Origin: Cenococcum geophilum 1.58 | Taxonomy: Eukaryota > Ascomycota > Dothideomycetes > Gloniales > Gloniaceae | Length of the DNA stretch: 64,000 nucleotides | Direction: 5' to 3' | Assembly (NCBI GenBank): GCA_001692895.1 | Contig: KV748177.1 | Coordinates: 2,480,001-2,544,000 of the forward strand | In this document: one piece after another, positions 9,316 to 57,240 of the stretch | Layout of the letters: the number at the start of each line of letters is the position of its first letter | Numbering within the stretch: position 1 is the stretch's first letter | Position numbers and translations under genes: made by a program | The notes under the pieces: model-generated | Databases searched by the model: none | Told to the model about the DNA's origin: nothing | What the model saw: only the letters and a program-made list of their open reading frames with translations

Positions 9316-9319
9316 AATA

Positions 9320-19574: not shown

Positions 19575-19623
19575 AATTTGTCTCTTAACGGGGTGCGTCT
19601 CTTAACCCAGGGACGGACGTTAA
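19575..19623 (-). repeat. Right terminal inverted repeat of the pogo-like element
   Basis: Starts AATTTGTCTC and ends GGACGGACGTTAA. It is the inverted counterpart of 16230-16278. The small minus-strand open frame at 19487-19693 runs straight through it and is probably spurious. Confidence 0.75.
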
Positions 19624-19959: not shown

Positions 19960-20640
19960 CTCTTAACTAAAAACGTTGCCTATATATTCCTACTAGGGTT
20001 AGGCAGTTAAGCACCTTATTAGAATAGAAAAGAGATATAGTAGATGCATTCCTCTATCTCTATAGAGTCCTATACTAATAAATAGTCGCTTACTATATAA
20101 ATTCCACTTAGAGTAACTAATAAACTGTTAGCTAGTAACAGTATAAACTATTCCTAAATAACCTAGCTACTTTAACTTCGTACTATCTTTAAGCTCTCCT
20201 ACTACGCTATCTATAGTCCGCTTAAATTCTACTGTCTATACCTTTAACTTTTTAACAGAAGCATTGATCTCCTAATAAAACCTATTATATTGTTAGAAAT
20301 CGAACCATTAGTAGGTCCTAAACTATTACCTTATCTTTTATTCCTCTAATCTATAAGTATATATTAGCTGTATTTAAAAACTTCCCACCTATATAGAGAC
20401 TTACTTATTCTGCTAGTTCCTAAAATTATTTTAAAAGCTTTTAAAATCATTCTATAGGTTTATAAAAAGCCCTTTAAGTTTCTCTACTCTATTTTAAAGC
20501 CCCAAAACGGCTTACTTAAGTTCCTTAAGTCCCTCTTCCTTACTTAATAGCTTAAATAAAACATTTTAATCTTTAACAGCAGGCTGTATCTATAGTAGCG
20601 AATCGTCTAGGATTATGGCTGGAAAACTAGATAGATTATT
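19960..20640 (-). pseudogene. Unidentified helical protein relic
   Basis: One minus frame of about 220 codons reads through RIP stops as a Lys/Leu/Gln-rich helical protein (for example KELKQAVLGL, then EFKRTIDSVVGELKDSTKLK). The periodicity suggests coiled-coil or helical-bundle structure like the N-terminal regions of some fungal signalling proteins, but no family-defining motif was found. It lies outside the pogo-like element but inside the larger insertion in copy B. Confidence 0.45.
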
Positions 20641-20714
20641 CTGTACGGGCCATCCCCAGGCGGTTGTTAGTAGACTAGCTATGCTAGTTAAATTGCATAA
20701 TACGTTTATAGATA

Positions 20715-21720
20715 GTTATAAACAGTGCTTATTAGGAAGCTATAGCGGAAAATCGCACGATTTATAGCAAGGGTAGCTTTCTAAATAGGTAAAGTCCTAC
20801 TATAATATCTTAGTAACTGCTTGGTTAGCGGCTAACTAAGAGACTTGCTATATACTCTGCGTAGATATAGTAGCATATAAACGCTTGTATTATCGTTAGT
20901 TTCAAGCGTTAATTGTTTTCTTAAGTGTTACGCTTTTACCTTCTACTACTATAGAGTAAAAAATTAATAGAAACAGTCCATGCTTAGTGGCTTAGATCTA
21001 TTTCTATTTTATTATTATAGCTTAGACTAGTCTCTCCCCTTAAAACCAAGGTTTTAGATTTAATGTCTTATTACTACGCCTTATCCTAACTCCTAATCTA
21101 TATCTTCCCGCTTTATTCCCCATAGGTCAATTATAAATAACTATAGATTTATACTGTCTTCTAGCATTAAAGACAAGAGTCTATTAGTACTAAAATGTAT
21201 AGTAATCCTGTCCTTAAGGATTATTATCCCTTTATACTATCCGCCTTAAAGCTAGTCCTATACCTCTTCTATAGCCAGATCTACAGCTTCCTCACTCCTT
21301 AATAACCTCTTATTAGCATCCACTGTAAATAGTTAAAGTCTTATATATAATTGTTAGTATACCAGAAACTTTTAGAGATAGCCTCTATTCTTATAAAGCT
21401 TTTTATTAATTAAAGTTTAAAGATAAAGCTCCTATATATTAGATATATTTATTTATAATAGCCGTGTTTTATCTAAGAGTGCATAGTAAATTTTAAAATT
21501 ATAGTTAAGGCCTTTCTACTATAATTCTTATAAGAGGGTATACTAAGTGCCTAAAAACTAGAACCCCGTAAGGAACCAAAATATAGTCCCTTTAAATTAG
21601 GAAGGGCCCCTAAGGCAGTAAAAAAGAATACGGCTTATATTAAACTTCCTTTATTTAGCAAAAGTGGTTAAAAACTAACGCTAGTTTTCTTTAGCTATTC
21701 TAAGAGGTAATTAGTAACGT
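20715..21720 (+). repeat. LTR-like block, copy B, with internal insertion
   Basis: Homologous to 8790-9315 at both ends (20715-21085 and 21510-21720). The middle 425 bp are absent from copy A and hold no recognisable gene. Sequence after the end of homology passes directly into the minisatellite at 21720. Confidence 0.5.
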
Positions 21721-22240
21721 TAGTATAGTATTATACCCCTAGCGAAGGAGTTTACCGCCTACCACTTACGCGCCCCCTACGCCGCAATATTAGGTATACC
21801 CCTTAGCGAATAACTATCTAGCGTCTTACCTTATTAATAAGATAATAGGTCCGTGTATATAATATTAAAAGTTCGTTAATCTAGGCTCCTTATTAGCTAA
21901 AATATTATTAATAACATTAGATATAACTTGACGGTTAAAGGGATAAGGCTAGGAATTTGCCTACTATTTACGTACGCTCCCCCACGCCGTAGTATAGGGC
22001 GTCCTCCTCCGCGCCGTAATATAGGGCATATCTCTTGGCGAACGACTATAGGGCTAGGAATTTGCCTATTACTTACGCGTCCTCCTTTTAGCAGTATAGG
22101 GCGTCCTCCTCTTAGTAGTATAGGGCGTCCTTCTTAGCGCTATAATATAGGGTATATCTCTTGGCAAAGGACTATAGGGCTAGGAGTTTTCCTATCACTT
22201 ACACGTTCTCTATCCGCGCCGTAATATATACTATTCCGTC
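21720..22240. repeat. Higher-order minisatellite
   Basis: Four diverged blocks of about 105-130 bp. Three open with GGCTAGGA[AG]TTT at about 21947, 22050 and 22178; an older copy is at 21740. Each contains a TACG-rich part, then one to three units of about 24 bp with a TATAGGGCGTCCTCCT core, and closes with TCTCTTGGC. The plus-strand open frame at 21928-22137 is carried by this repeat and is not a convincing gene. Confidence 0.75.
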
Positions 22241-22759
22241 GGACTTTTTAGAAGTTTTTAGAATTTCTGGGCTTAGTAATAGTAATTTTAGCTTTAGATA
22301 AGACTTTAAAGTGCAGACATAGCGCTTAAACTTTATTTTAGAGCTTATCCTCTCCTAGGAGGTATAAATAGCAACATTCGCACTAAACGGCACCGCCCGC
22401 TTAGGCTCTATATAGCTTTAACTTTCCTTCTTTCTACGGATATAAGGCATTCCATTTATTAAGCTAGAAGATACTAATTTAAGCTAAAGTCCACCAATCT
22501 AAGCCAGAGCCCTCTAATATACGCCGTCCTTTAGTTAAAATATAGCCCCTTAATAGCCCGGACGTTATATTAAACGTAGTAATATAGTTTAGGTAAGACC
22601 TAAAAGTCTTAGGTACCAGTTTTATCTAATCTATTAGGTAACCCGCATTAATATAAAAAAAGAACCATCGAGTTCTCGCATCAACGCTTGACTTTAATCT
22701 CTTCCTATTAACCAGCAACTTCTCGCTATTAATAACAGGCTTTATAATGCTTTATAGAT

Positions 22760-23480
22760 TATAGGTATCTCTTATATAAACCTATATAACTTCTAAGCCG
22801 CACTCGCTACCTACGAGCAAAACCGTCTTTAGTGCGCTAATATATACAAATCTCTATATACGCAGCATAAGAAAGCAATTATAGAACTTAGCGACATGGT
22901 AAATAAGTGTTTGTCCCTATATCAGGAACTAGAAAGTACTTAAGAAACCATTTACACCTATAAGTTTAGGATTTGGGAATATAAGCGATATCTAGGTGGT
23001 AAGGCCATTTTAGGCAATAATAAGGACTATAATATAAGTAAGGCAGACTAGGATATAGTAGAAAATGCTACTATAATAAAGGAGGTACTCGAAGGTAGGA
23101 TCGAGGAGCTTCTAAATAAGAAGGCTAAGATAATACAAGAATATATAAATAAAAAGTCTAAGATAATATAAGATTATAAGAATGAGAAGTCTAAGATAAT
23201 GCGAGATTATCTAAACGAAAAGTCTAAGATGATATAAGATCATTAAAATGTATTAATTAATACTGCTAATTGTATTAGTGCTGCTAAGAGTAAAATCAGT
23301 AAATTTAAGCGGATGTAATTGGAATTAGTAGGCCTAAAGTTATCTTCGGAACCGATCCGGTCCCTAAGTACTAGGAAAAGACCATATAGAGAGAGCTTAG
23401 AGCAGTAGGTAATGCCCCTTAAGAGGGGTAAAAAGCGTAGGCGGGTAGTAATAAGGTATAATATAGGGATATAAAAGTAT
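22760..23480 (+). pseudogene. Coiled-coil protein relic with 11-residue repeats
   Basis: One plus frame of about 240 codons contains a helical region, then at 23125-23240 four tandem 33-bp units coding (N)-E-K-S-K-I-I-Q-D-Y, then a basic KRGKKRRR tail near 23430. Stops fit CAA/CAG. The 11-residue repeat suggests a long amphipathic helix. I do not recognise the family; the basic tail could bind nucleic acid. Confidence 0.5.
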
Positions 23481-24264
23481 AGAGTTAAAGAATAGCACTA
23501 GCATTCTCTTATTTCTAGAGCGTATAGTAGGCATATAGTTACACTCATTTATATATTAGTTGGTTTCAATTTCATCTTTAAACAGCGCCTCTCCCTAATG
23601 CCAACATTTAACTAAGTAAAAACTTTAGACGGTTAAATGCTAACGACTATATAAAGGGTCTAAGAACTAATACCCTATATCTAGTATAAGCTAGAAAAGT
23701 AGCTACTAAATTAATTAGCGAGAAGTTACTAATATTATTCTCCTATATTACTAAAACTTTTGTATCTCCCTTATGGAAAGGATATAGCTTACGCTAGGTA
23801 TAAGCTTTTCTAAGCTCCGCGGACCCTAGCATTATAGCGGGAGCCGTAAACTAGGACCCTATAATTTCTAAATCTAATATAGACTAAAAGCGGGCCCTAA
23901 GCACTAATAGTAAACGACTTTTACCCCTAGCGTGATGCTATAAAGATATAAATCCATAGCCGTAAGTATAAACCTATAGATAACTCTTAATATAAGAATT
24001 ATACCTAAATATAAGCGAATAAAAATCTGTCTTTTCCCCCCTACTTCTAATGGACCTTTAACGCCCACTACTACTAATATAGAAATTAGCTGCAATGATA
24101 AGTTATCTATAATAATTAAAGTAACTAAAGACAAATTATAAATATCTAAGGAAATGCCGACTTCTAATCTTTAATAAATGCTTAAGTAGACAACGCGGGA
24201 GAATGGCCAGCTTACGCTAGAGCTTTAGCATCTACGGTAAAAGCACTATAGAAGTATATATGTT

Positions 24265-24650
24265 ATGGCAGAAGCAAGGCTTATTATTAAATTCCTTTAG
24301 TAGGTACTTAATAATTACTAAAAGTTATAGAAGGAAATTAAGGATGAAATTGTGTAGGGGTTAAATTAAGTTAAAATAATTGCCAAAATTGTATTGCTAA
24401 TATATCGTCAACTAACGATCTTTAGTACTGGCTCCCTTACTATATATATATAAAGGTTCCAGAGCCTGTTTTTAGAGTTAGAATCTTTAATTTATCCCTA
24501 TTTATAAACCCTCCTAATTAACAAAATGTTAGTTCCTTTAGATATACTCTAATAACTTCCTATAGTTAAAATACTACAATCTCCGACCCACTTTCTATCC
24601 AGCTAAGTAATTATAATTACTATATCCATATAATGCTTAGGGTATAACTA
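24265..24650 (+). pseudogene. Possible short relic frame
   Basis: From the ATG at 24265 a plus frame of about 125 codons has only RIP-type stops and a Leu/Ile/Gln-rich translation. No motif or homology was recognised. It sits just beyond the 3' end of the ferric-reductase relic on the other strand. A chance frame in AT-rich DNA cannot be excluded. Confidence 0.25.
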
Positions 24651-24749
24651 GTAAGCTATATTTACTAAATTATAAGAGGACTTTAGAGACTCTTAGGTAT
24701 CTAAGAAAATCTACCCCTCTAAATCCATTATATTAAGCGAACCTACACA

Positions 24750-26620
24750 CTTCCTCCAATATCCTTTAATCTCTTAAGATTAAACATACTCCTTAGCCGC
24801 CCGTTATATCCTCTAGGTAAGTATAAACAAAAGTCCAGTTCCTTTAAATAAATGTTCTTATCTAATATACGTTAAATAATCTCGCGAATCTTGTTGCTCG
24901 TCTTATTATTTATACATACTATTTTTATATTTAGCAGTAATTAAAAGGCGGACTAGTTATTATAACTTATAAGAAACCACTATATAACCCTTTTAACCTT
25001 TAATTTTAGATCTAATTAGACTTTTAGCGTTTATAATAGTGTATATTATACTAATACGCTCTCCAGGGTAAATAATATCTCCTTACTTTATTTAGCTAGA
25101 AAGATAGTTACTTAAGATAAAAAGCTGAATATCTAGAATCTAACACCTAATTAATATAAATACCTTATATTATATCTAGAAGTAAATAAACCTTATTAAT
25201 GTCTCTACTAAGCAGCTTTACTATTATGTTAGTAACCTAAGCCGCGTGCACTTTAGAGAGGTTATTAGCAAGTCATTCCTATAGAAGTGTAAGAGAGCTT
25301 ACGTTTAGAGTCTAATTCCCAAAATAAAGCGATCCTTTAGGTTTTTACTTTGTAATTATAGTATCCCTTTAGAAGCTAACCTGCTATTCTAATCCCTATA
25401 GCAAATAATAAGACCATCCCGTATAATTTGAGGTTAAGTTTATTTCTATACGGTCCCTTAATTACAGCTCTTATTTTAGAATTATAGATAAGATTATTAT
25501 TAGCGTATAAGAATAGGCTCCTAGTAAATCCACTCCTTTTCTAGATGATTAAAACTATAATATTATTGCCCTCGGCATCGCGATACTACTAGGATACGTA
25601 AAAGGGATATAACTGCGCAAATAAGGTATAGCTTACTCCTAAAATGTAGAGGTATATATACTGGCCAGCTTAAGGCTTTTAAGGCCTTAATAGTTAGATA
25701 TATATATAAACTGCATCCGGAACGGGTATCTCTCTCCTATAAGGTGTCTTAATAGCTATTTATCATATTCTTACTTAATTCAGCGGCTTTCTATACTTAA
25801 CGTTGCGGTATAGTACTTAACCAAATCGCAGGACAGCTATAAATATCTAAAGGCATATTGCTACAAATAAATATACCGCTAGCGGCGTTAATAACTCTTT
25901 AGATAGACTATAAAGATATATTGTAGCTATAACTATAGCGCCAAGTATTAGGTGGAGCTTTAAGAAGATTTTATAGGCGTATTAACGTATACTAGCGACA
26001 GAAGAGAGTAGCATAATAGCCATAGTAATAGCAGCCTAAAGAGCTCTATTAGCTTATATTTGCTTCCTAGAACTAAATCTAGCTTACTATTAGCGCCGCC
26101 ACATCTAAATATATACGTAGGTTAGGCTTCCGCAAAGATATAGCTACCGCCGTATAAATAAGGCCTTTAACTATAACCACTCTTCCTAACCATCGGTGTA
26201 TCTAGGCGTAGGTACTAAGCCTAATTCTATAGCGGCTAGCAATAAAATTTATCTGGGCCCCTAATAACAGTGGCGTAAGATTAATTATAGACATTAGTCC
26301 AGAGCGTCTTATTAGCCTAGAAATATCTTTAACTCAGACGGTAATGCAAAGAACGTTTACTACTAAGAATGCCAGAATTAAAACCGCGTTAAATAGCGTT
26401 GTCTTTCCAAAACCTCTTAAATATCAATAGATCTATAGATAAAATACGTACTTATAAAAATAAAATGTTGCGTAGATGCGGGCGAATTTAATAGTTTTTA
26501 ATAGCGGAGAAGCGGTGATAAATAAAGCTATAAGGCCTAAGCCCACTAAATACCATTGTGTGATATCTATAGTGAGTAAGAACGGTGATTTTTAAAGCCC
26601 ATAAGCGCGGCGTACGCTTA
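24750..26620 (-). pseudogene. Ferric reductase-like transmembrane oxidoreductase relic
   Basis: Reading the minus strand with two frame changes gives the fungal FRE order. A hydrophobic segment (WYLVGLGLIALF, about 26560) comes first, then FYFYKY-FYLQIYRYLRGFGK (about 26450). The haem-binding region follows, with QIHRWLGRVVIVKGLI (about 26210) and LKLHLILGAIVIATIYL (about 25960). The FAD-binding motif region is KPQAGQYIYL…LHPFYVS (about 25640), and the NAD(P)H part carries VLLF-A-G-I-IAGQL and RRIALFWEL (about 25420-25310). The C terminus is Y-LKELDFYLY-PRG near 24830. Such enzymes pass electrons from NADPH through FAD and two haems to ferric iron at the membrane. The frame changes could be introns or indels. 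Confidence 0.88.
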
Positions 26621-27117
26621 CTATCCGTGCTTTATATTTAACCGACTTCAGCTTAGAATATACTAACATTAGTTACACTTTAAAAAGGCAGGATAATGGA
26701 AATGGGTCCTTTGCTAAGAGTAGTAATATTATTAAATTGGCGGCAATTTGGTGTGCTAGATGGAGCCAACTTGTTCTAGTAGTAGATTAAGTACTTTTAT
26801 TAGTGGCGTCAAGTAGATTTAGGAGCTTTGGCGCTTTTAAAGCGCTAATACTATACCTAAAATAGAAGTCCTTAAGTAGTAACGGGTACGTGCATAGGGG
26901 GAAGTAGTTAGGGCAGTAAGGGGCATAAGCTTACGTGGTTACTACCTATATACGTATTATATATAGGCCTATCCCATTCTTCTATAGTATACTTTAATTA
27001 AATACAAGTTTAACAAGTCTAAAATTATATCTATTTTTTTTTCTTTTAATACCTAAAATATGCTAAGACTTGCTATAAATAGTATATATCAAAACTGGAG
27101 CGCTACGGCGCTTAGTA
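26621..27117. other. RIP-degraded spacer up to the LINE insertion
   Basis: No motif-bearing frame was seen. A T-run lies near 27033. The right end (27105-27129), joined across the LINE to 29257, forms an imperfect palindrome built from GTGGATTTA and TAAATCTAC. Confidence 0.35.
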
Positions 27118-27129
27118 GATGGAGTGGAT
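27118..27129. repeat. Target-site duplication, left copy
   Basis: GATGGAGTGGAT, identical to 29245-29256 on the far side of the poly(A) tail. A 13th matching A at the outer edge is ambiguous because the right copy follows the A-run. Confidence 0.9.
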
Positions 27130-27511
27130 AAAAACCTTCACCGCACATGCAACCTTACCAAAAGGTAGCGCCACACTCTAAAACTTACGCATACCCATCT
27201 TACCATCAAAAACAATTGATTTTCCAACTTTCAAGACCTAATTCCTACCGCCTAGCGAGCTAGAGGTGGATTTATTTGTCATTTTACCCCCTTATCCCAA
27301 CAGAAAATTTTCTCTAGGGGTGGTCCTAGCTTATAAGCGAGGCACGGACAGGAACACCAAAACCACTACTACTACCACCAATACCAATACCAATAGGGGC
27401 TAGTCTTTCTACTCCCTTTTAGCCTAATCTCCCCAGAAATCTTCTAGTAGGATTAGTAAGGAGAAAGGTATAAGGGTAGAAAAAAAAAAAACTAGGAAAC
27501 CCCCCTATAAG

Positions 27512-28888
27512 ATGCCAAAGTCTAATAGGCATAAAAAAAAACCTCCTATAGAAATAAGTGATAATGAGTCTACGACTACATTCACTTTTTCTGCCCCTTC
27601 TCCTTCTCCTGGCCTATTTGGGACAGGAGAAAAAAGAGGACATCCTCAGTCTTCTACTGAAAAAGAAAACCAAAAACCTGCAAAAAAGACAACAAAATTA
27701 ATGACTTTTACGGCTGGTATACCTAGTATATCTTTCCCTCCCCTTTCTCCTAAACAACACCTACAAAAGGCCCTAGAAAGCCTAATACAGGCCTATAAAG
27801 GGCTAGAAGAAGAAGAAAAAGAAGAAGAAAAAGAACAAGTTAAACAGCTAGAGGACTATACACGGAGTATTCTAGCAGGAGAAAATCCCTTTATAAAAGG
27901 AAAAGAAAAGGCAAAAGATATCCTACAAGGATTAGTCGAAGAAGTAAGAGCTCTCCGTAAGGAGGTAGCTCCTACTAAGGAAACCTACGCAGAGAGACTA
28001 AAGAAGAACCTCCCTTCCTCGTCCCCCCTGCCCTCCTTACCAACACTATCTCCTGCCCCTTCTACTTCTACTAGAAGTAAGAAAAAGCAGCTACAAGAAA
28101 GGAAGCTAGTCCTTATTACAGACCAAAAGGACCAACCTCTAGATACCTTCTCTATACGAAACAAAGTCAATCAACTATTTACATTAAAACTGCAAGTAGA
28201 AAAACCTGTTTTAGCATCCATAGCTAGAACTAAAGGAAAACAAAATATTCTTCTTACAACTACGGAAGAGTATAATGCGGATTTCCTAGTTAAATACAAG
28301 GAAATCTGGCATAATTGCTTTACTTTTTAAAGAGAACAAAAACTAGAACCATGGGTTCAAATTATAGCCCATGGGGTTCCTACCCTACCTTTCCTAGGAG
28401 AAGGAGGCTCTAAGCTTCTAAAAGAAGAAATTGAGACCTTTAATCCTATAAGGATACAAGGACTACCTAGATGGATCTTATCTAGTGTAAAAAGACACGA
28501 TCCACAGACCAGATTCGGCTCTATAGTTTTTACTATAGAAAACGAAGAAAAAAGACAAGAAATCCTTAAGCAAAAAGAGATATCAATTGCAGGTACAGCT
28601 ACTAAGGTAGTAAAATACCTCGAAGTCTCTCCTACTACGCAGTGTACGAGCTGCCAAAAATTTGGCCATATAGGAGACAGGTGCTCTACTAGGGCCTGTA
28701 GATACTGTGCGGCTGCACATTTATCTAAAGACCATTCCTGTTCTACCTGTATAATAACAGGCAAGCCTTGCCAGCATACTACCCCTCTTTGCATTAATTG
28801 TAAAGAAAAACACTTTGCTAATAGTAAAGACTGCGAGACTCTTAAAGCTGCTAAACTAGTACGCGAAGAAGATTCTATGGAAGAATAA
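27512..28888 (+). pseudogene. LINE ORF1 (gag-like nucleic-acid-binding protein)
   Basis: The ATG at 27512 opens a frame of 458 codons broken by a single TAA at 28328-28330, exactly what one CAA-to-TAA RIP event would give; the frame then runs to TAA 28886-28888. The N terminus is Ser/Pro/Lys-rich with a Glu/Lys coiled-coil stretch at residues 90-115. The middle has the Tad ORF1 motifs LTTTEEYNADFL and W-x-I-x-HGVP. The C terminus holds zinc knuckles, first CTSCQKFGHIGDRC (C-x2-C-x4-H-x4-C), then Cys/His clusters ending CINCKEKHFANSKDC. ORF1 proteins coat the element RNA and act as chaperones. The minus-strand frames at 27985-28170 and 28357-28794 are shadows. Confidence 0.95.
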
Positions 28889-29055
28889 AAACAGATAGGA
28901 TTCTAGAAGGAGGCAACTCCTACTAGGCTCTTAAAATGATATTAGAGAGCAAAAGGACAGAAATAAATTGCAAAAGGACAGGGACAGGGGTTAGGATTTC
29001 TTATAGTTTTTCTTACCATTTTCTCATTCCCTAGTAGTTGTAGTATCTTAGTATT

Positions 29056-29102
29056 TTACTAGGAAACTATAAACTCCTAATTTAGGGGTTTATAAACTAC
29101 TA
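29056..29102. other. Hairpin in the LINE 3' untranslated region
   Basis: TATAAACTCCTAA at 29068-29080 and TTAGGGGTTTATA at 29082-29094 pair over 12 of 13 positions around one base, and partial pairing extends to CTAG on both sides. It lies about 130 bp upstream of the poly(A) tail, where some LINEs carry a stem recognised by their reverse transcriptase. Confidence 0.55.
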
Positions 29103-29244
29103 GGACATAGCTACTAGTATATATTAAGCTGCCTAGAAAGGATTTATGTATATAGAACTATAGCGCCATAGCCTAGAGGCTGCATGCGCAGTATTGTACG
29201 TAGTATAATACAACGGACCTAAAAAAAAAAAAAAAAAAAAAAAA

Positions 29245-29256
29245 GATGGAGTGGAT
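29245..29256. repeat. Target-site duplication, right copy
   Basis: Identical to 27118-27129 and directly after the A24 tail. Removing the element and one copy restores a palindromic GTGGATTT…AAATCTAC target. Confidence 0.9.
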
Positions 29257-30210
29257 TTTACCTTAAATCTACGCCACGCTAATCTAACAAGATCACCGGC
29301 TAAGAGCCTTAAGCTTTTTTTAGAAATAGAATTTTCGCTAATATACGGCCGGCGATCTAAGACTGGAGGATTAGGAACATTCGTATACTTTATAGTATAC
29401 ACTATAATAAAGCAGAAGCAGTTAGTTAAACTTTATAATAAGCAACTAAAGAGACGGTTAGATAGCCTAAAAAGTAAATACTACCAGTATAGAAAGCTAG
29501 AAAATATTAATTTAGCATTAATTATCCAGAACCGTAAAAAAAAAGAGATCTATATATACATATTAATAGATCTAGAGTTATAGTAGCCGTCTAAGGAGTA
29601 AGTTATAAGTAGGTAGCTAAGTTATAGGTATTTTCACTTCTAACGTTTAGTAAGTAGCTAGCGCATCCTAAGTCTATAAACGAGCTACCTATAGATATAG
29701 AGAGAATTAGGTTAGGAAAGTATTTAAGGCCTATAAGTATAGCTAGGAAGAAGAGATTAAAAAAGGTTAAGGAAGCGATTATATCTAGGGAATTAATATC
29801 TAAAGAACGGTAGATATCGGAAACAAATCTACCTAAAAGATTAGTTGTAAAAGACGCACTAATCTTTCTAAAACTGCTATTGTTTAATTTAACTATACTA
29901 AAGAGGAGAAAAGTATAAGCGGGTTTCCTTCGGCGTCTTCTATATTAGGACCGTGGTTATTAGGGGTTAAATAAAGGAGGCAATAGTAAGGGTGTAGCCT
30001 TAGGCTTAATAGATTAGAGGGGAGTAAGGAAGTATATAATTAGAGTTATAAGATAAGTTAGAAATTAGCGTATAATAAAACATAAAAGTATCTATTACGA
30101 CTTAGGTTTGTAGGTAAGAGAATATAGTTACATTAAGTAGGCAGCACCTCTCGTGTTCCGCTATAGGGAACTTTGCAGTATACGTAATAAAATAACCACT
30201 ACCTAACTCC
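29257..30210 (+). pseudogene. Unidentified basic protein relic at the LINE target site
   Basis: A plus frame, open from 29251 to 29583 and then continuing through RIP stops to about 30200, codes a Lys/Arg/Gln/Leu-rich protein of about 315 codons (LYNKQLKRRLDSLKSKYYQYRKLEN near 29430-29505). Its apparent start lies in the duplicated target sequence, so the true N terminus may have been separated by the LINE. The last part (29960-30220) is repeated at 39330-39640, so this is a dispersed repeat family. No function can be assigned. Confidence 0.4.
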
Positions 30211-30220
30211 ACTATTACTA
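29960..30220 (+). repeat. Dispersed repeat, first copy
   Basis: Matches 39330-39640 in the same orientation. Shared anchors include TATTAGGGG/TATTAAGGGG, GTAAGGGNGTAGC, TTAGAGTTNTAA, GTAGGTAAGAGA/ATAGGCGAGAGA and ATAACCACTA. Differences are mainly RIP-type. Confidence 0.6.
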
Positions 30221-31749
30221 TTATTAATAATAACAACAACGTCATTTTCGAGTCGTAAGCTAACATAGCACCATTTACCTAAGTATTTAAACCCTTATAT
30301 ACCGCGCTAAAAGCTCCACATCAGACGGTTTATAAGCGCTCTACCTGCCTTAGTTAATCTCATTCTACCTATATAATCTTAAAACGTTAAAACTAAACTA
30401 AACCCTTATTATACGGCATAATTAGCATATTAAGCACCTTAACAGACTTCCTATATAATAACCCCTTAGGGTACTAAGGTATTAGAGGTTATAAAGGGCA
30501 TAGATATAGTTAATATAAAGATAAATAGGGAATAACTTAAGGGCTAGTTAATTTGGCTCTAAAGGCCATAGATAGAGTTAATACTAAAACTTAAAGGGGA
30601 CGTTAAAGGTGTTATAAAATCACTTAAGGAACGCCTCTAGAGCTAGGTTAACAAGGTTAAAAGTATATTAATATAATATAGCAATTTAAAAATACCTAGA
30701 TGATCCTATCTAACCTATTACAGCGCCTATTTAAAATCGGAAATAGCTAGAGAGTGTCTTAGGTTTTAGCAACGTGGGGCCTATAGTATAGTAACCTCTA
30801 ACGTCTAGGCGATTTTATACAGCAGAATATAAGGTAGAGACGGATAATAGGTCTAAGTTAAGAGGGATTAAGAGAAGAGAACAATTTACAATAATATAGT
30901 GGAATCGCTTATTTTATAAGACGAAGGTGGTAAAAGGCAGAATAGGATAACGCGGGTAGAGCTATAAGCGACGTTTATTTCTAAGAGGACTTGGGGAGAG
31001 ATTTTAGAACAACGTACCGCTATATTAGGACGAAGGATATCTTTTACGGTGTAGTGCTTAGATAGAGGGCTACTTTAGATTTAACGGATCACTAGCATAT
31101 CCGCGATTTTCCCCAAAAGCGGTCCCGTTAAAGGGCTAAAATTAGACCCTAAATATAACCCAATATAAATAAGTTATGCTTAGATGGCAGTAGATCTACT
31201 CTATATGCACTATAACCTTATAAGAACCTAAACATTAATTTATTCTATCCTTTATCTTATAGCATTTCGCTATATTACTAACATATATATTTCGCTTCCT
31301 TTTAATAGCTTTTCTATACCACTAAGGTCTTACCCATACTTAGAATAAACAACTTACGGTTATTAAAAATAGGATCTTTATAGGGGCTAATAGTTACCCT
31401 TATAGATATGTCTCTTAAACTAATCCCAGCTTTAATAATAATATAATAACTTATCTATTACCGCCATTAGCCTTAGGAAGAATAAGGGTAGATAGCTTAA
31501 ATCTTCTATATACTCTAATACAGAGGATAGCTAATTAAATAGTGAATTTTCTATAACTTTAGGTCTCGTTAGGGGCTTATATAGCTATAAAGTATCTTAA
31601 AAATAGACATATTACTCTACCGTAAAACTAGCTAGGTAAACTAATAGCGGCTAGAATAGTTTACGTTTTTAGAACAACCTAGCTAAGTAGCAGTAAAGTA
31701 TTAACGGACGTACTATAGTGGATAGTAGACGGCGCTGGCGGTGACCAGA
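30221..31749. other. Degraded region with a weak plus-strand frame
   Basis: About 100 codons near 30870-31160 (plus) read coherently through RIP stops (KRTWGEILEQRTAILGRR), but no family is recognised. The rest has no supported frame. Boundaries and strand are uncertain. Confidence 0.3.
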
Positions 31750-32970
31750 GAGGAAAACTCTTAACTACTTAGAACTTTAATAATAACAAATGCTATTAAA
31801 TTAATAATAGCGACCTCTCTATAGTATATTAGAAGAAGTTTCCTAACCTAACTCTTAGTTAGCCCGGATCTATTAACGAATAGTAATATAAGACTAATCT
31901 TATTATCCCTACGGATCTGCAACCCAATTCTACGTATATAGTATACTAGGTATAGCAATGGCTAATAAAATCCGGCGCTCTGGGACTGCCTAATAGGAAA
32001 AATAAGTACTATATAACCTACTCTAACCTTAATATTATTGCCGGTCCTATCTAAGGGGAGCCGTTAAACCTACTCCCGTAGCAGAACCCCTAAATTACTA
32101 CTATTTCCAACTTCTAATCCCGCACCGTATATACTACTAATCCTCTTTTAACCAGTAGCGTCTTAGCTAGTAGGTTCTAGATAATTTTAAGGGCTAAAGT
32201 AGGTAATTATAGATATAGCAAATAGTACAACTAATAGATAGCAATTATCCCTTCGCACGTAATTTGCGTCTATTTATTATTAATAAAAACTGGCCAATTA
32301 AATTAACTAAATCAAATCGTTTATACTTAGAAATTCTAGTATTCCTATACGGACCAACTTAGAGATAGACATCACCGTTTAAAGGGATAGTTTTTATAAT
32401 TCTGCAGTCGTTTCCCTTAGTATATTACTCTCCTTACGTATATCTTATTTCCGTTTATAATTATTAAATATACTACTCTACTCTAGGATTTAGTAATTTA
32501 AAAAGCCGGCAGCTGTTAGAAATTTTCTTATTAACTTATATCTAAAAATAGTAGCGAGAATTAGCCCTTATAGCTAGGGTAAACTATTTTTATTATAATA
32601 AGGGACTAGTTCTAGTCCCGTCTAACCTTATATAGAAGTTTAAGGGGTTATCCTATCTATAAAGAGGCTGTCGGCCTATCCTATATCTTGCTCTCTAGAT
32701 TAATCGCTATCCAAAATACAGCTCCTTCCGTTATTTGTCGCTCTAATAGCTCCAATTATTCTAGGGTCCTAAGATTAGTACAATTGCTCTACTAATAGAC
32801 TTCCGAATATTATTATAGATGCTGGTTAAAGAGCTAATAGCCCAGTAGTGGAATTATTCCTTCCGCTATTTGTTGACTGCGTTAGCGCCTAACCCCAATT
32901 CTAACCCCAATTTCTATTACTAGGAGGTACTAAAGGACACCCCCCTACCCCCCTAGCCCACCTAATAACT
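31750..32970 (+). pseudogene. Unidentified single-frame relic
   Basis: One plus frame of about 400 codons is broken only by TAA/TAG. Well-preserved pieces include NLIIPTDLQPNSTYIVYQVQ (about 31890-31950) and YRSLRGYPIYKEAVGLSYIL (about 32625-32690); the end is Pro-rich. The frame overlaps the beginning of the patatin frame, which is in another phase, so its 3' end is uncertain. Nothing in it matches a family I know. Its position between ferric-reductase and patatin relics makes it a candidate cargo gene. Confidence 0.45.
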
Positions 32971-35900
32971 TTTTAAGCTAACAAGCTCCTAGAGCCGCTC
33001 CTTATAGGCCTAAATATCCCTAATTCTGCCAGTGACCTTATAATCACTAGAGTATTTAATTAGAATGGGTTTACCGGAACCGATGCTACTCTTCGCATAG
33101 CGAAGTTCTTTCCTCTTAATGGAGTTAGCTACCAAGTAATTATATCTAAAGGAGAGTTAATAGATCTTTTTAGTGCAATACCCGTAGATCTAGGTGTAGA
33201 TAGTAGGGTTATACCTATTAAGTTCGTAACCTATATATATCTCCTCCAAGTTATACCAGCCATCCCCTAAACATCTTATTGTTAAGAACGTTAGTAAATA
33301 TCTTAAACTTTTCTACCTAGCGAACCGCTTCTTTTAAGAGACTAATACTCTTATTTCAATTACTATTAAAGCTAATAGAATGCCCAAAGATGGTTTAAAT
33401 AGTCTTTCTCTATTAAAATAAATTGTATCAATTGCTTAATTCTCTAATCTATTAAGAAATGCGGGGATAACACCATTAATCTATGGCATTGCCTAAACGT
33501 TAAGGGGTTTAAAGAGCCAATGGAATAGTATTATGGCTGCCCTAATAAAACACCTATACTAAGTTTATATAAAGACTATTATTAAAGGCACTTCTAGGCT
33601 AAAGACGCGGAGGTAATATATAAGCTACTTATCTATCTAATAAACACTAAATATGGAGAGTAGGTTTAGTAGAAGTAGTAACTAAAAGAGGTAATTCTTC
33701 TCTTATAGGAGAGAGTCGCCCCATGCCGTACTCCTATAAGTACGGATATAGGAAATCTCTAGGCATTTTAACTCTATTGTCTAAGGATCTCTCTTTAGGG
33801 AGCTTAACTATATAAGCTAATGCGTAAGTAACTTCTAAGCTCGCACTAGCGTAGTAATAGTAATAAATCTATATAACGGACTTAGGGCAATAAAACCCCG
33901 TTACTTTTATTATACTTTTAATTTTTCTACAATCGGGTCTTAAGCAAATATGCTCTTCTACATTTTGGCTAGGTGCTATAGTATAACCTTTCTAGTATCT
34001 CCGTGATCGACGTCTATTACAAAGAGAGCATCGCGGAATAGTCGAATTTCTAATCTTAGAACATTCCAAGTCGCTAAGTTTATCGCTAGGTACGTTTAGT
34101 ATTAGTCATTTTTAAATAAATAAGGTGGACCTAGTTAAAGGTTATTTAGACCCTTTATATTAGCTAGGTAACTTACTTAATTTTATAATTAGGTTAGGTA
34201 GAATTATACTTACGATCCATTTTAAATATAGAGCTCTATATATAAAGTAAAGAAATTATAGGTTCTTACACCATTTTCATTAGCTATTAAAACACGCATT
34301 AACTAGTAAAGGAACTGTAGGGACCAGTTTTAGGTACCCTTAAGAGAGCCCTGTCTTGGTCCCCCGCTACTAAAAATAAAGGACCCGAAATTGCTACTTC
34401 TAACTTTATAGAAGCCCGTTTTTAGGCCTTATTAGAACAATATTTATTACGCATAGATCCTAAGGGCTGTATATCTAGCTACGTCTTCCTATTATAACTC
34501 CATTAATATACTTAAAACAGCCGGTCTACTCTCTTAATTATAAAGCGTTGTCACTATACCTACTAGCTAAGTCTCTGCACCTAAGGCAATAAAATTACTC
34601 TTTTAGAATCGGACAGGCTCTAGACTCTTACTAATTATATTCCTAATCCCAATATACAACCTAGTCTATTTGTACTAATCGGTAATTTAGCGAAATTAGT
34701 CACCCTCTAAGAGCTATTTAGGGTAAAGAGGGCGCGAAAGTTTATAAATAAGCGAAGCATAGGCGAGATACATCTCCACCTTAACCTATCTAGCATTTTT
34801 TACAGCAGACCGGTACTTCTTATAAATAGCGATCTTCCTAAACAAAGTCTTAGGGGAAAGATAGTTATAGCTAATAAGTACTATAAAACAATACGGTAAA
34901 CTATTTAAAGAACCCGAGCTGGGCCATCTAGCCTTTCTCTAAATAAAATCACAAATAGCATCTACACCTACCTACTTTTTCCTTTTGCAGATATCTTCTA
35001 CTTCTTTTATACTAATCTTAGTTTTTTTAGACAGATTGCCCGCCACATTACTACGTAGTTAGAGAAAGGCCACTTATTAACCCTTCTAAAGAGTACGTAC
35101 CTAAGGGTAGTAATTATAACTAAGAAGATACCTCTGGGAGCAGAAAGTGAGGCTAAAGAGGCCTTTCTATAGTTGTTAGGAGAGGAAACAATAAAGGATC
35201 TGTCTAAGCTAATATCAGCAATTAATATAGTCGCTCTTTTCCCAAACGGCATAATATCTGTCGATACTTACTATAGACGCCTAAAAGAGCGTCTAATGGA
35301 TAGTTTAGATTAAGTGCGAAAGAGTAGAGAAGATAGACAAACTTTATTCTCTATAACTTATTTCGCCGCCTTTCTCAAGTACGCCTATAGGCACTTTTTA
35401 GAAACTATTAATAAACCCTTCGATTTTATTAGAGCGTTAAGGATCTATAACCCCGTTGCTTCTAACCTAGTAGAACATCTATTAAATTTCCTAAAATATA
35501 TTAAGTTAACTAATAAGCTAACGGAGTTTATAGTTCTAATAACTGCTTCTAGTTTTTTTCTAGATAGCTACCCGCCTAAAGCACATAGTAAGTATTACCC
35601 CGCTAGAAAATTAAGTCATGCTAACTTTAATATAGCGTTTAAACTTAAAACTATATTTAATATAATTTACAAGGACGTCTTCTACTAGGTAAGTAAGGCT
35701 CGAGTTATAGCCTTTAAGCAGTCTAACCATGTCATTCTATAAAGTGGCTTTATTAATATGGTCGAAAACTAATTCGTCTACTGCTTTTAGCAATTTACTT
35801 ATAATAATATAACTGCTATAGAAATTTATAAGAGCAACCTTATACGATTCCGAGATAGATGGCGCTATATATAGAGTAGCAATATATATTTATCTTGTTT

Positions 35901-37728
35901 GCGCAAAAGACCATAGTATTACTTACCCTGTGGGCACTGTATTTGCAAGAATTGAATTATAGTATTTAGGGATCGCTGCAAGGACGACCCCTAAATCTTT
36001 AAAGTGCGCCACTACTTTCTCTATAGAGAAGAGATGCCGAACAATATAATTATAAAAGTATACCCTCCGACTATAGGAGTAGGAGTCTTATATATTAATA
36101 GAGGAGGCACATAGGGTATTATACTATTAATACTAATAAAATAAATACAAGATCGTGTTAATCTACTAATTCCCTTTTAGCGGTTTATTAAAGTTGCTTT
36201 TAGGGTCAGTATAGGTAAGAGCTCTATATACTTTAAAGAAAAGAAATTAATACTTATAACTTAAGGAGCGGTAATCGCCATAGATCATTACATTAAGGGA
36301 CGGCCCCTTAAAGAGTCCATCTAGATGTTCCTAGAAATCGCAGAACGTGTCTTTAAACGGCAAAAGGCTTTTAATATCCCATTTATTTCCCGTACATTTA
36401 AGTTAATAGTGTCGTATTTTACTAACGGTTTATACTTAGCCTAAAATATTAAGTCCGTCCTAAAAGAAGTCTTTAGTATAGATAAAAGCATTCTAGACTA
36501 CTTTTATGCAACATTTATAGGGATAAAGATCGGCTTGCCAGTCGCTATAGTCAGCAGTTATCTATTATATTGTATATTCACTAACTATAATAGGGTAGGC
36601 ATACGGGACGAAGATTAAGGTAAGCTCCCTATATATAACTTAGTATAAGAGTCGTCTAACAAACCTAAAGACAACGCCGTTATAAGGCCAAAGGATGGCT
36701 ATAGAAGAGTACCGCTTTAGGAAATATAAGATTGGACAAACCTTACCATTAGATAAGACTAATATAAAATTTAGCATATAATCCACATCTACAGCGCCCA
36801 GGTATACTTTAGCTTACCTCTTTTATACCTAAAACTAACTATACCTTACAGTTTCTTTCCGCCAAAATATATTAATAAGGTTGGCACATTTTAAGATATA
36901 GAACTCCTTAAGAATAACCCCCTACTTTAGGCGCTTTTAGAGGTATTAGTAATATTTCCGCTTATTAAAGAACCTAACTTTGTTATATCTCTAGGTACTA
37001 ATAAGCTAGGGCCAAAAAATTACAAGGTATCTATAGATGACTGCCATAGTATTTAGAAAAACGGAATATTCCCTAGAACATGTAATCTAATCTTGGAGAA
37101 AATACGCGATAAAATAGTAAGATAAGCCTATAAAACTGTTAGACTGGCGGTCCAAATTCTTAATAAAATTTACCGCCTTAGTACCGACTTTAATGCCACT
37201 AAACCGAGACTTAATAATACAAGAAGTATACCTAAACTTAAATTAAAAGTTAAAATAGATTACTCCCTATCGGCCCGGATCGATACTATAGCACGCTATA
37301 TAATTGCATCTCTATTTTATTTTAAATTAGACTTTCTTTTAAAGAGATATAATGGGAAGTATATAGTTACCGGATATATTCTATACTTAATAACACGCAG
37401 TAATCCAGCCTTCGAAGCCCTATTAAGTAAATTAGCGAATAACTCTACCGGGTTTTTAATAAATAATTAGCCGATTCCCGGAACATTTAATAATACTTCC
37501 TTTATAGATAAAGACGGGAACTTCCGGAAATAAGTTAACCTAGATACTTTTAGGAAATTTATAATATCTCTAAAGGAAGGTAACGCTAAGCCTTATAATA
37601 TTAGTAGGTTACCTTTCTTAATAGAGAACCTAATAGCCGCTTAAGGTCTAGATACTCCCTTTAGTAGGGCTAACCACGGCAAGTGGAAGAGGTTATCTGT
37701 ATATAATACTCTCTTAAGAAAGCGGTAA
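32900..37728 (+). pseudogene. Patatin-like phospholipase with RING-like cluster, relic
   Basis: One uninterrupted frame of about 1,600 codons (no intron or frameshift seen; stops are RIP-type) ends at TAA 37726-37728. Order: a long N-terminal region with a C-x2-C pair near 33430; a helical middle (open at 35314-35688); a Cys/His cluster, CLRKRPQYYLPCGHCICKN to HYFLYREEMP (35896-36035), RING-like; then the patatin domain. There the oxyanion-hole motif is N-R-G-G-T-x-G (about 36090-36115, family DGGGxRG). The nucleophile motif is R-V-S-I-G (36202-36216, family G-x-S-x-G, first Gly lost to RIP). The dyad Asp is at 36895 (D-I-E, family D-G-[GA]), after FFPPKYIN-VGTF. Patatins are Ser-Asp acyl hydrolases; in fungi they often occur in immune-like proteins. 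Confidence 0.9.
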
Positions 37729-38011
37729 TATATTTAAATAATAGCAACTGCTTCTAGTAGACTTATATAAAGATTTAATTTAGAGAATATACTATATAGG
37801 AGGTAAGTATAGAGGGGCGGGACGAAGCAAAAGTGGTAAGAAAGATTGTATTATCTTTACCTACCCCTAGCTAGAATATCCTGCGTACTCTCCTTATAAA
37901 TAACTTTAAGATAATACCTAACAATCCAATTGTAGGACTTGTGTTTATTTATTATATACCATCCTTTTCTATACCACTTATTATATTTTTCATTTTTAAG
38001 TTCTATGGATA

Positions 38012-39300
38012 TTATTTCTTCTTCTCTAATATCACACCATTGGTTAGGGTTTTTTTTTAAAGGCGGCTCTATAATAGGCGCTTAAGCTTAATACGGATAC
38101 AGCGGAATTTTTCTTTTAAAAATTCCAGCCATTTAACCGGATTTTTGGTTTGTTATAATCTAAATATTTTAGAAAGTAACTAAGATATATTTAGGCTTTT
38201 GTCTTATTAACCCAGCTCGTGCCTTTCCCTTACGTTTAAAGGTTCTGCTACGAAATTTTTCTAAAATCTCACTATACTCTTATAGTCTTTGCAGGGCTTA
38301 TAATATTGTAACATATAAATCCTAGCACTAGCCTTAATCAAATCTATCCTAATAATCCTATTACGGCACTTAGTCTCCTTAGAATAACGACAGTACTTCG
38401 CACCTTATAGATACTTTACCGCAATATCCGGTTTAGGAAATTAGGAGCAAATACAGTGTTATAGCACCTCTTAGATGCCTTATACCTTTTAATTACGCTT
38501 ACCCGGCTATTAGACTTCCGCGCCAGCCAGTATATTTAGCTTTAGACCCCTAATATAAGCTTCTAGTCATTTGCGCAGATACACCCGTTTATAATTATAT
38601 AGTGGAACAAAGATAGGATAGAGATTAATCTTCTCCTAAAAGAACACAGCCGACGAGGATTTATCTATAAATTAGTCCATTAAAAAGAAAATAAGTTCCT
38701 AAGCTAGGTTAACGGGCCTTACGGATCACCCCCTAGGCTAGGTAACTTTAAAACGGCAATTCTAATAGCTAAAGGTATTGAAATCGCGGCACAGAAGAAG
38801 ACGGCGAGAAGAGACACTATAGCGCCTTTTAAATTGACTTTATTTGTAATTTTAAACTATATATCCGCTTCTTATATGCTTTATATTCTATCCATAAAAG
38901 TGCTTAAAAGAAGTATACTGTTTAGTTTAACTCCTTATCTAGCAAGCCTTTTACCTTAGCTTTATCTATTTACACTTCTAATTATATATTTACCCGGAGC
39001 ATCTTATATATAGACGGGCAATCTACACCTTTAACTATATTGGGTCTTGGCTCCATATTTATAGCAATACTATTACCGCTTTCTTCTTGGTTGGAATTAG
39101 AAACATTAGCTATTATATTTTAACTTTCTACTTCTTTAAACGTCTTATTATCCTCTAGGTTACTCGCCTCTAACTTAAAAGTAAAGTTTAACGGACTTTA
39201 GCCTGCGATTGCGGTAATATCTAGGCGGTTGGGGTTAATAAAACTTATTAGAACTGCGTCGCCTTAGCTAGGCCAAGTATTGCGTTCTATTTGGCTTCTT
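38012..39300 (-). pseudogene. Unidentified Cys-rich protein relic
   Basis: Two minus frames read coherently. The upper part (39300-38480) holds an Asn/Glu-rich stretch, then VDCPSIYKMLRVNI and a helical region. The lower part (38480-38012) contains C-x-C…GAKYCRY-KETKC (about 38420-38360), probably a zinc-binding cluster with one ligand altered, and ends in a basic tail at TAA 38012-38014. A frame change near 38480 could be an intron. The zinc cluster suggests nucleic-acid or protein binding. I do not recognise the family. Confidence 0.4.
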
Positions 39301-39329
39301 TGACGTAGTAGAACTGGAGCTTATTAAGG

Positions 39330-39640
39330 GGTAAACGGAGGAGGCGAAGGTAAGGGAGTAGCTTTTAGCTTAATAGGTTAAAGACTAGGGGAGCAAGGAA
39401 AGGCGTTATTAGAGTTGTAATTTAAGTTAGATATCGAAATATAAAGAGATATAAAATTATTTAGTAGGACTTAGGCCTATAGGCGAGAGAGGCTTTATAG
39501 GCTGAGAATCAGCTTAGGAATATAGTGCTATTTAAACTTCGCTTAATATAGCTTAATAGAGGACAGAGCTACGGGAACACATTATCCTCTAAGTTTAGGC
39601 CCCTATTATATAACCACTAACTACTTATAAGTTTAGTAAG
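39330..39640 (+). repeat. Dispersed repeat, second copy
   Basis: Counterpart of 29960-30220, same orientation. The coding phase is less well kept here than in the first copy. Confidence 0.6.
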
Positions 39641-40589
39641 CGAGCATCCTAAGAAGACATTTCCTCTCCGGATGCCACGGCTAAGAGCTTAATAGTGTTA
39701 GATATTCTAGCAAAAAGGACTTAAGATTAAGTGGTCCGTGCAGAACTAGAATTAAAACAACGCGAATAGCCTTATTTAATTAATTTAATTAGCTAGTTTT
39801 TATTAATAACTATAGGACGTAAACTAGCGTGTTAAGGGATAATATAATAAAGCTAATAATAGGCTTTCCTAACGGCTTGTGCCATATACCAATTAAGGAC
39901 TTTAGTAGCCACCTATAGTATATTCTTAGCAGCTAGCAGCTTGCTTTAACGCTCTAGAAGCTCCTCCTATTTGTCTTTAGGAACTTTAAACTAAGTAGAG
40001 CGTATTGGATATAGTAAGTTTAGCTTCCTCCTATAAGCGTCTACCAATCTTTATTTTTAGGAGTCGAGGCTATACTTATATCCCAGATTACCAGAAATCG
40101 CTTCTATTAAGTCTTAGAATATCCAGTAATAGCCTATATATTACTAGCTTTGGACCTAGCGGTAAGACTTATTATATATAGTGGCGTTAAAATTACAGGT
40201 AGCTCTGTATCGCCCTCTTCGTCGCAAGCCTATAATAACTACCCTACTTTATTATAAGACACCTATTTTAGAGAGCAGTTAATTGGGTTCCCCTTACTGC
40301 GTTGCAGATATAAGAGGAGCTGGGACTGTTAGGCGCAATGGCCAAGTTTCGGTTCGCATAGAAGGAACTAACTATAGTGCTAGCTACGTCCAACAGGGCG
40401 CGAGGATGCACACTGCTACTTTAGTTATATTTTCCCTATTATTGCCTTAAGGCCTTCACCATATAGACTGGTTATTAAGAAAGGAGAATTTATTTAATAG
40501 ATTGCAAAACCCCCCTAACGCTCCGCATAAGCTAGAAAACAGAATTTGCTTATAAAGTAAAAGATTACCTTTGGCAGACTTTTATAAAG
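39641..40589. other. RIP-degraded DNA, nothing recognised
   Basis: Neither strand gave a motif or a long coherent frame. Confidence 0.3.
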
Positions 40590-41235
40590 CTCCCTATGCT
40601 CCTAGCCATTTATAATAATTACTATAAAGCCCAATGCTAAGATTATACAACTGTGTTATATATTAGTAAGCTAATAGCTAAAATCGGAGGGGTTTTGTAT
40701 ATCCTGGTTGCGACCATAATATAACTGGTCTCCTTAACGGTATAGAATATAACGGAAACTACTAATATAAACCATACACCAATTAACCAAATAGAGAATG
40801 CGGATATAGGGTAATTCTATATATGGACTAATTACGCAAGCTAAAGATAAATAGTAGTTAAATAAAAAAACCAAACGCGCTAGACCGGCTTATCTTTAGA
40901 ATATTCGTATATTGCCACTAAGGCGTAAATAAGTACTGTAGAAAAGTAACTAAAGAGCCCTATTTTAATAATAGAGGGGTTTAGATTCCTGTAAAGCTAA
41001 GCTATTATAGTAAAGAGGGTAAGATAAATAAATCTGCCGACGGGAGCTATAATCTTAAATATCTAAAAAGAAAATAATAAAGGTGAAAGAGGGAGAGGGC
41101 TAGCTTATAAGGATATTGTTTATTAAAAATAAGGCGAGCTATATAACGCTATATTAGTCAAGCGGCTTCCTAGGTAGGTTAGCGCCTAATATAAAAAACG
41201 GCACCTAGGGCGTCCGACTATCGCGGTTAACTAGA
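40590..41235 (+). repeat. Left arm of a long inverted repeat
   Basis: Reverse complement of 46075-46615, recognisable along its whole length. Anchors include CTAATAGCTAAAATCGGAGG (40668-40687), the AATGCGGATATAGGGTAAT block near 40797, AGAGGGAGAGGGCTAGCTTA near 41087 and CACCTAGGGCGTC near 41206. Differences are mostly RIP-type. The arm carries a plus-strand Lys/Gln/Arg-rich frame (about 40990-41230) that is mirrored on the minus strand of the other arm. Confidence 0.85.
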
Positions 41236-41296
41236 ATAGCCCAGCTTCCGCTATTAAAAAAGGGAGAATCTTCTTCCATACTCCATATTGATCTTT

Positions 41297-41656
41297 TTAG
41301 TATCCATTTTGCTTAAGTAATTCTGTCCAACTAACAATATTATCCATCCCGTCTATTCTTAGTGATTCTGTCTAATTATTTATTAACTCCAACTTCTATA
41401 ACTCTAAATAACTATCTAACTACAGCCTATTCCAGGTACACTGTATAAATACCAAAGAATTAAATAGCTTTAAGGGATTGGGGCAAAAGGCTAATATTTT
41501 CTTAGTTTATAAAACAGTTAGGGCGTAGAACATACCTATATAGTAGCTTCTAACCTTAATAAATATAGGTTCAGCGAATATTATAAGGAAAATCTCTTTA
41601 CGTTCATTTTCAAATTTCCACTTCCAGTCGTAATCTATACCTTTTTTTGAAGCCAT
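41297..41656 (-). pseudogene. Small conserved-looking ORF relic inside the inverted repeat
   Basis: An ATG at 41656 opens 119 codons ending at TAA 41297-41299, broken by only four RIP-type stops. The N terminus reads MASKKGIDYDWKWKFENER and is hydrophilic; the middle is hydrophobic. It has more TGG, CAG and CAA codons left than its neighbours, so it is less mutated. The family is unknown. Its place just inside the left arm suggests it belongs to the element bounded by the arms. Confidence 0.45.
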
Positions 41657-57238: not shown

Positions 57239-57240
57239 TT

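What the first reader, a model, noticed from the sequence alone, without database searches (positions are those of the whole stretch)
24750..37728. Ferric reductase and patatin relics side by side: possible dead Starship cargo
A ferric-reductase relic (-, 24.75-26.6 kb) and a very long patatin relic (+, 32.9-37.7 kb) sit about 6 kb apart in a block ruined by RIP. Ferric reductases, patatin-like proteins, NLRs and DUF3723 proteins are recurrent passengers of Starship giant transposons. Host single-copy genes are normally not RIP targets, so these copies were duplicated, as expected of mobile cargo. The unknown frames at 29.3-32.9 kb and 38.0-39.3 kb would be further cargo. I did not find a DUF3435 captain.
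Basis: partly seen in the sequence, partly recalled or inferred. Interest (0 to 1): 0.82.

Follow-up and report, generated by a model that had tools for sequence, protein, structure and literature searches.

The report
Dead giant transposon with gene cargo
The two ruined genes are passengers on a very large fungal repeat that was copied to at least eight places and then wrecked in the copies that could be read by the fungus's own mutation defence; it is most likely a dead member of the known Starship transposons, although its movement gene and its ends were not found.

Summary
A ferric reductase (FRE) relic lies at about 24.9-26.6 kb (-) and a long RING/patatin relic (PLP) at about 33.5-37.7 kb (+). 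The "unknown frames" include a DUF7492 relic (31.3-32.0 kb) and a truncated second FRE (38.1-38.8 kb). RIP-like bias covers the whole window.

FRE has 7 other near-full dead copies on 7 contigs; 6 of 7 carry the PLP at like spacing and orientation. About 66 kb is repeated at about 91% identity, differing almost only by transitions (window versus C39: 1556 transitions, 12 transversions). The copies were near-identical when RIP hit: amplification, then shared inactivation.

Elsewhere in this genome a second family has captain (DUF3435), PLP and FRE in one order at 6 of 6 loci, the captain facing the cargo. The FRE2 piece recurs at 9 or more loci, 7 of 9 with DUF3435 within 60 kb.

For the window's own family neither captain nor true end was found; three apparent ends were other junctions. 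"Dead multicopy cargo-bearing giant element" is well supported. "Starship" is the best name, but two defining features are undecided.

The parts
170..50377 (.). window part of one copy of the giant repeated unit (family A); it continues to the left of the window
   Evidence: 7 of 7 other copies match from 170; four copies colinear from 13.5-14.4 kb to 23.5 kb and C36 on to 47.1 kb; other loci match up to 50377
24900..26600 (-). ferric reductase relic (FRE1), with about 57 stops in the frame used as query
   Evidence: PF01794 and PF08022; 7 near-full copies
31332..32042 (+). DUF7492 (PF24320) relic
   Evidence: E 1.6e-36 in one frame read with X at stops
33552..37738 (+). long RING/patatin relic (PLP); best coding match 35062-37599
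   Evidence: copies at six family-A loci; patatin by homologues; start and end of the gene itself not fixed
38099..38794 (+). truncated second ferric reductase (FRE2) shared with other loci
   Evidence: matches FRE1 (E 8.3e-8); PF08022 E 0.0019, below cut-off; 88-90% DNA identity to 9 other loci
27130..29243 (+). LINE-like insertion with poly-A tail, private to this copy
   Evidence: 13-bp target duplication 27117-27129 and 29244-29256, poly-A 29221-29244; 7 of 7 other copies uninterrupted
16229..19624 (.). element with 50-bp terminal inverted repeats, already present in the unit when it was copied
   Evidence: inverted arms 86% alike; colinear in all four copies read there, C39, C36, C18, C43
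1..169 (.). end of another repeat inserted into the unit
   Evidence: matches many other places up to about position 169; family-A copies carry different sequence there
50378..57500 (.). another repeat (D) that follows the unit at a junction
   Evidence: C70 and C5 copies

Best explanation
Most of the window (170 to about 50.4 kb) is one copy of a dead giant mobile element, family A, about 66 kb or more long, at 8 or more loci. It carried FRE, a DUF7492 protein, a long RING/patatin protein, a captured piece of a second FRE and, outside the window, a nucleoside 2-deoxyribosyltransferase-like gene. Shown: multicopy, shared gene order, RIP-type damage, almost transition-only divergence, later nested insertions. 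Inferred: it moved as a Starship, that is by a DUF3435 tyrosine recombinase (captain) that excises and inserts the whole unit; it multiplied in a short burst; the duplicates were then mutated by RIP in sexual cycles, which killed the cargo in all copies read.
For: 7 other FRE copies, and 6 of these 7 with PLP at like spacing and orientation. About 66 kb shared between copies on different contigs. Window against copies: transitions/transversions 1556/12 (C39), 1727/15 (C18), 1726/33 (C36), 647/11 (C61), 372/3 (C11), 1053/33 (C43), 803/51 (C28), against 999/313 for the more distant C26. 22 of 32 FRE loci have a PLP within 60 kb, 0.026 expected per locus. Family B: captain, PLP, FRE in one order and captain facing the cargo in 6 of 6 loci. 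FRE2 piece: 7 of 9 other loci have a DUF3435 match within 60 kb. A deoxyribosyltransferase piece of family A (89-92% DNA identity) lies 8.1 kb downstream of a DUF3435 relic, same strand, on C15. FRE and PLP are named as prevalent Starship cargo in PMC12134995 (passage).
Against: No captain found for family A and none listed within 100 kb of its 8 FRE loci. No true ends found. Over all FRE loci only 7 of 32 have a listed DUF3435 within 100 kb, where about 3.4 would be expected by chance, so the captain link rests on the fixed order in family B and on the FRE2 loci. Four more distant family-B captains (C47, C7, C1, C43; 63-74% identity over their longest matches) have no listed FRE or PLP within 100 kb. 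DUF3435 genes are more often solo than in Starships (PMC12134995, passage). At two FRE2 loci (C45, C9) the DUF3435 match does not face the FRE.
Confidence: 0.72

Rival explanations
1. Segmental duplication: a large host region with FRE and patatin genes was copied several times by recombination, and RIP then hit the duplicates; no transposon moved it.
For: No captain and no true ends found for family A; inverted segments in C28, C43 and C11 show rearrangement.
Against: Eight loci on eight contigs with near-zero transversions; FRE and PLP recur together in other families with other spacing, one with captains in fixed place; the only two FRE loci with 0-2 stops over more than 200 residues (C51) have neither a PLP nor a listed DUF3435 on their contig.
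Confidence: 0.15
2. Another kind of giant composite element or a nest of smaller transposons that moved or was copied together, with FRE and PLP captured by chance.
For: Many nested repeats: TIR element 16229-19624, repeat piece at 3.5-4.6 kb also found inside other copies, two right arms.
Against: Order and spacing are kept over tens of kb in copies on different contigs; FRE+PLP pairs recur in several families.
Confidence: 0.11
3. Host FRE and patatin genes at a fixed place, damaged by RIP leaking from neighbouring repeats.
For: The whole window is RIP-biased.
Against: Both genes are themselves multicopy, 8 and 7 loci, with like spacing.
Confidence: 0.02

Closest known systems
RIP-mutated derelict Starships (P-rho in Paecilomyces variotii and Spiromastigoides)
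   Same: Giant cargo elements immobilised by RIP; duplication of a Starship in one genome can lead to RIP (passages of PMC11623301)
   Different: Here 8 loci of one unit in one genome, and neither captain nor ends seen for this family
Captain-less Mpha_Derelict
   Same: Starship cargo without a recognised captain (passage of PMC12134995)
   Different: Here the lack of a captain is unproven, because the ends were not read
Family B of the same genome (C62, C21, C35, C16, C5, C2:5.06-5.11 Mb)
   Same: Carries PLP and FRE relics and is broken by stops
   Different: Has a DUF3435 captain about 26-37 kb from the PLP; its PLP and FRE are only about 29-34% identical to those of family A

Membership tests
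Starship | DUF3435 tyrosine recombinase (captain) in the element | tested here: inconclusive
   None in the window or in the 25 kb of left flanks read; genome scan scored 100 of 346 candidates. Ends of the element not reached.
Starship | Captain at one edge, reading inward (recalled) | not tested
   For family A no captain was found. In family B the captain faces the cargo in 6 of 6 loci; whether it lies at the edge was not tested.
Starship | Giant unit carrying cargo genes | tested here: met
   About 66 kb shared between copies with four cargo gene types
Starship | Recurrent cargo such as FRE, PLP, DUF3723 | tested here: met
   FRE and PLP; no DUF3723 match in the parts scanned. Cargo list from PMC12134995 passage
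Starship | Precise ends with direct repeats and an empty site | tested here: inconclusive
   Three candidate junctions read; none is an end of the unit
Starship | Host in Pezizomycotina | not testable with these tools
   Host unnamed; DUF3435 genes and RIP-like bias fit
Ferric reductase | PF01794 and PF08022 domains | tested here: met
   PF08022 over cut-off; PF01794 in two pieces below cut-off
Patatin-like protein | PF01734 domain | tested here: met
   Indirectly, through homologous loci that score over cut-off; the relic itself gives no Pfam patatin match

The most novel reading that the evidence does not exclude
Starship-like giants can behave like bursting transposons: in this one genome family A (8 or more loci), family B (6) and the FRE2-bearing loci (9 or more) multiplied and were wrecked by RIP, family A while its copies were still almost identical. 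The 7-11% divergence of the family-A copies is then RIP damage and not age, so element identity cannot be used to date them.
Probability: 0.5. Interest if true: 0.68.

Novelty: new member of a known kind. Interest (0 to 1): 0.55.

Why it matters
It gives a genome in which giant cargo elements reached high copy number and were then wrecked, so control of Starship-like elements by RIP can be measured: transversions count time since amplification, transitions count RIP. It also shows FRE and PLP recurring together in several unlike families of one host, in one of them with captain, PLP and FRE in fixed order, which bears on why these genes recur as cargo.

Tried and rejected
Window 169/170 as the left end: rejected. 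Positions 1-169 are the end of another repeat; 12 of 12 other boundaries read (7 family-A copies and 5 more distant loci) continue with one related sequence. C36:786339 as the left end: rejected; six other loci (C61, two on C39, C18, C2, C28) continue to the left with a common sequence. Window 50377 as the right end: rejected; three other loci continue there with a common sequence, and the repeat that follows in the window has two copies with a different shared upstream sequence. Captain at the place predicted from C15: not found in 5 kb of C2; a chromodomain match (E 7e-4, below cut-off) lies there, probably of a Gypsy-type repeat. PDB search with the PLP frame: 0 matches. tRNA scan: none. 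Long DNA queries scored few candidates (36 of 676, 3 of 136) and missed copies found later; shorter ones did better (40 of 92). Naming the host: the size (177.19 Mb in 162 contigs) recalls Cenococcum geophilum, but this is recollection and no call shows it. Papers: (Cenococcum + Starship + transposon) gave 1 paper, seen in passages, nothing on this element; some searches were seen as listings; PMC12134995, PMC12289983 and PMC11623301 as passages. An earlier count gave the LINE target duplication eight bases too far right on the left side and one base off on the right; the positions in this report are the corrected ones.

Full report
The window is G000:C2:2480001-2544000 of a 177.19-Mb genome in 162 contigs. 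No species name is given; DUF3435 genes and RIP-like bias fit a filamentous ascomycete.

Observation. The minus-strand frames at 24.9-26.6 kb carry Ferric_reduct in two pieces and FAD_binding_8. The plus-strand frame at 35.06-37.6 kb gives no Pfam patatin match but matches loci of the same genome that overlap PF01734 matches over cut-off; its sister copy in C36 shows a weak RING, three other sister copies do not. The unknown frames: 31.33-32.04 kb is DUF7492 (E 1.6e-36); 38.1-38.8 kb is a truncated second ferric reductase. RIP-like bias covers 32 of 32 bins of 2 kb and is absent from six patatin-gene loci used as controls.

Copies. FRE1 has 7 further near-full copies at 82-87% protein identity, broken by stops, among 38 rows with 43 of 43 candidates scored. 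A PLP lies at like spacing and orientation in 6 of these 7; for C11 none is listed, but only 53 of 107 candidates were scored. FRE-PLP gaps are 6.29-6.54 kb in five copies and 7.35 kb in C36, where another repeat piece lies just upstream of the aligned PLP part. The window's 8.46 kb is explained by an insertion of about 2.1 kb (27130-29243) with poly-A and a 13-bp target duplication. I call it LINE-like by eye (two frames with zinc-knuckle-like cysteines); Pfam gives its frames no match over cut-off. The site is uninterrupted in 7 of 7 other copies.

Extent. 7 of 7 copies match from window 170 on, C11 in two parts. Four copies read there are colinear with the window from 13.5-14.4 kb, with some insertions; C36 is colinear on the right to 47.1 kb. 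The distance between the points matched to window 170 and 13498 is the same in C36 within one base. To the left of the window the unit continues: the next 10 kb of C36 matches C2 and the six other copies, and the 10 kb beyond that matches C2, C61, C39, C18 and C28 (37 of 3116 candidates scored; C43 and C11 not listed). That stretch holds a nucleoside 2-deoxyribosyltransferase-like relic (E 5e-15). From C36:786339 to 852800 this makes about 66 kb, nested pieces included. Not read directly in other copies: most of window 3-13.5 kb and 30.2-33.5 kb. The right arm has two versions: C39, C18 and C43 leave the window's sequence after 38097 and share another. Segments are inverted in C28, C43 and C11.

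Timing. Over the blocks counted, the window differs from the copies almost only by transitions (transitions/transversions: C39 1556/12, C18 1727/15, C36 1726/33, C61 647/11, C11 372/3, C43 1053/33, C28 803/51), while the more distant C26 shows 999/313. That count took blocks of 300 bases or more and 86% identity or more (70% for C26) and dropped blocks that overlap a counted one, some adjoining blocks among them. In the FRE block the window and five copies (C36, C61, C11, C39, C18) show 0 transversions in 15 of 15 pairs over about 2.37 kb; pairs with C43 show 4 (17 with C28) and those with C28 16-17. Of 2357 gap-free columns 512 vary by transition only and 18 with transversion; C/T columns are most often before A (131) and G/A columns after T (136), while unvaried C before A numbers 4 and unvaried G after T 9. 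The copies were thus near-identical when RIP struck, and the 7-11% divergence of that block is RIP damage.

Captains and related families. PF11917 gives 165 matches with 100 of 346 candidates scored. None of the listed rows lies within 100 kb of the 8 FRE loci of family A, nor does any row of the second captain search (86 of 143 scored). Family B has captain, PLP and FRE in this order at C62, C21, C35, C16, C5 and C2:5.06-5.11 Mb, that is at 6 of the 6 places where this captain matches at 77% or more, the captain reading toward the cargo. Captain-PLP gaps are 28.0-28.1 kb in four and 26.1 and 36.5 kb in two (positions; the gaps are my subtraction). Four more distant relatives of this captain (C47, C7, C1, C43; 63-74% over their longest matches) have no listed FRE or PLP near. 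At C52 and C5:2.06-2.10 Mb a DUF3435 of another kind, PLP and FRE lie in this order on one strand. The FRE2 piece has 9 other listed loci (36 of 676 candidates scored), 7 with DUF3435 within 60 kb; at two of these (C45, C9) the DUF3435 does not face the FRE.

Of 32 merged FRE loci (the window counted twice, for FRE1 and FRE2), 22 have a PLP within 60 kb, against 0.026 expected per locus; only 7 of 32 have a listed DUF3435 within 100 kb, against 0.105 expected per locus. These loci are not independent, since families share descent, but families A, B and the C52/C5 kind differ in spacing and orientation. The two FRE loci on C51, with 0-2 stops, have no listed PLP or DUF3435 on their contig. On C15 a piece of the family-A deoxyribosyltransferase (89-92% DNA identity) lies 8.1 kb downstream of a DUF3435 relic on the same strand; this is the best lead to a family-A captain, but the predicted place in C2 (5 kb read) gave none.

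What could not be shown. No captain of family A in the window (Pfam on parts), in 20 kb of C36 (Pfam on 10 kb) or in 5 kb of C2. Three candidate ends turned out to be other junctions. Pfam misses are weak evidence because Pfam also missed the PLP.

Comparison. RIP-mutated derelict Starships, and FRE, PLP and DUF3723 as prevalent cargo, are in print (passages of PMC11623301, and PMC12134995). In Verticillium dahliae most transposons in Starship regions do not show RIP (passage of PMC12289983). What is unusual here is the number of near-identical copies of one giant unit and the recurrence of FRE with PLP in several families of one genome. In the listings I saw no title or abstract beginning that reports this; PMC11231334, on copy number variation by a massive mobile element (listing), was not read and may bear on it.

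Verdict. A dead, multicopy, cargo-bearing giant element is well supported (near 0.9). That it is a Starship I put at 0.72, resting on cargo, size and sister families, with captain and ends open.

Noticed in passing
G000:C49:752543-753905 (L009, L013): A DUF3435 gene with one stop in two adjoining stretches and little RIP bias (index 0.10), possibly a recent or living captain.
   Followed up: no
G000, DUF3435 matches: A DUF3435 gene form whose matches split near profile position 211/212 has dozens of RIP-broken copies, far more than families A and B.
   Followed up: no
G000:C17:1300585-1306322: A nearly unbroken relative of the PLP (44-46% identity in its first two stretches, no stops there), perhaps a living gene.
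   Followed up: no
window 60500-64000: Part of a very abundant repeat: 39 other near-full copies at 91-92% were listed with 40 of 1707 candidates scored.
   Followed up: no
window 6110-6935: 36-base tandem repeat, 22.4 copies, open on both strands.
   Followed up: no
window 52666-52831 and 57130-57237: Two arrays of a like 10-base unit (16.7 and 10.8 copies) inside the repeat that follows the unit.
   Followed up: no
window 3303-4568: Repeat piece with relatives at window 60.0-61.7 kb and inside the PLP part of the C36 and C43 copies.
   Followed up: partly
G000: C28, C43, C11 copies: Segments of the unit are inverted relative to the window, differently in different copies.
   Followed up: partly
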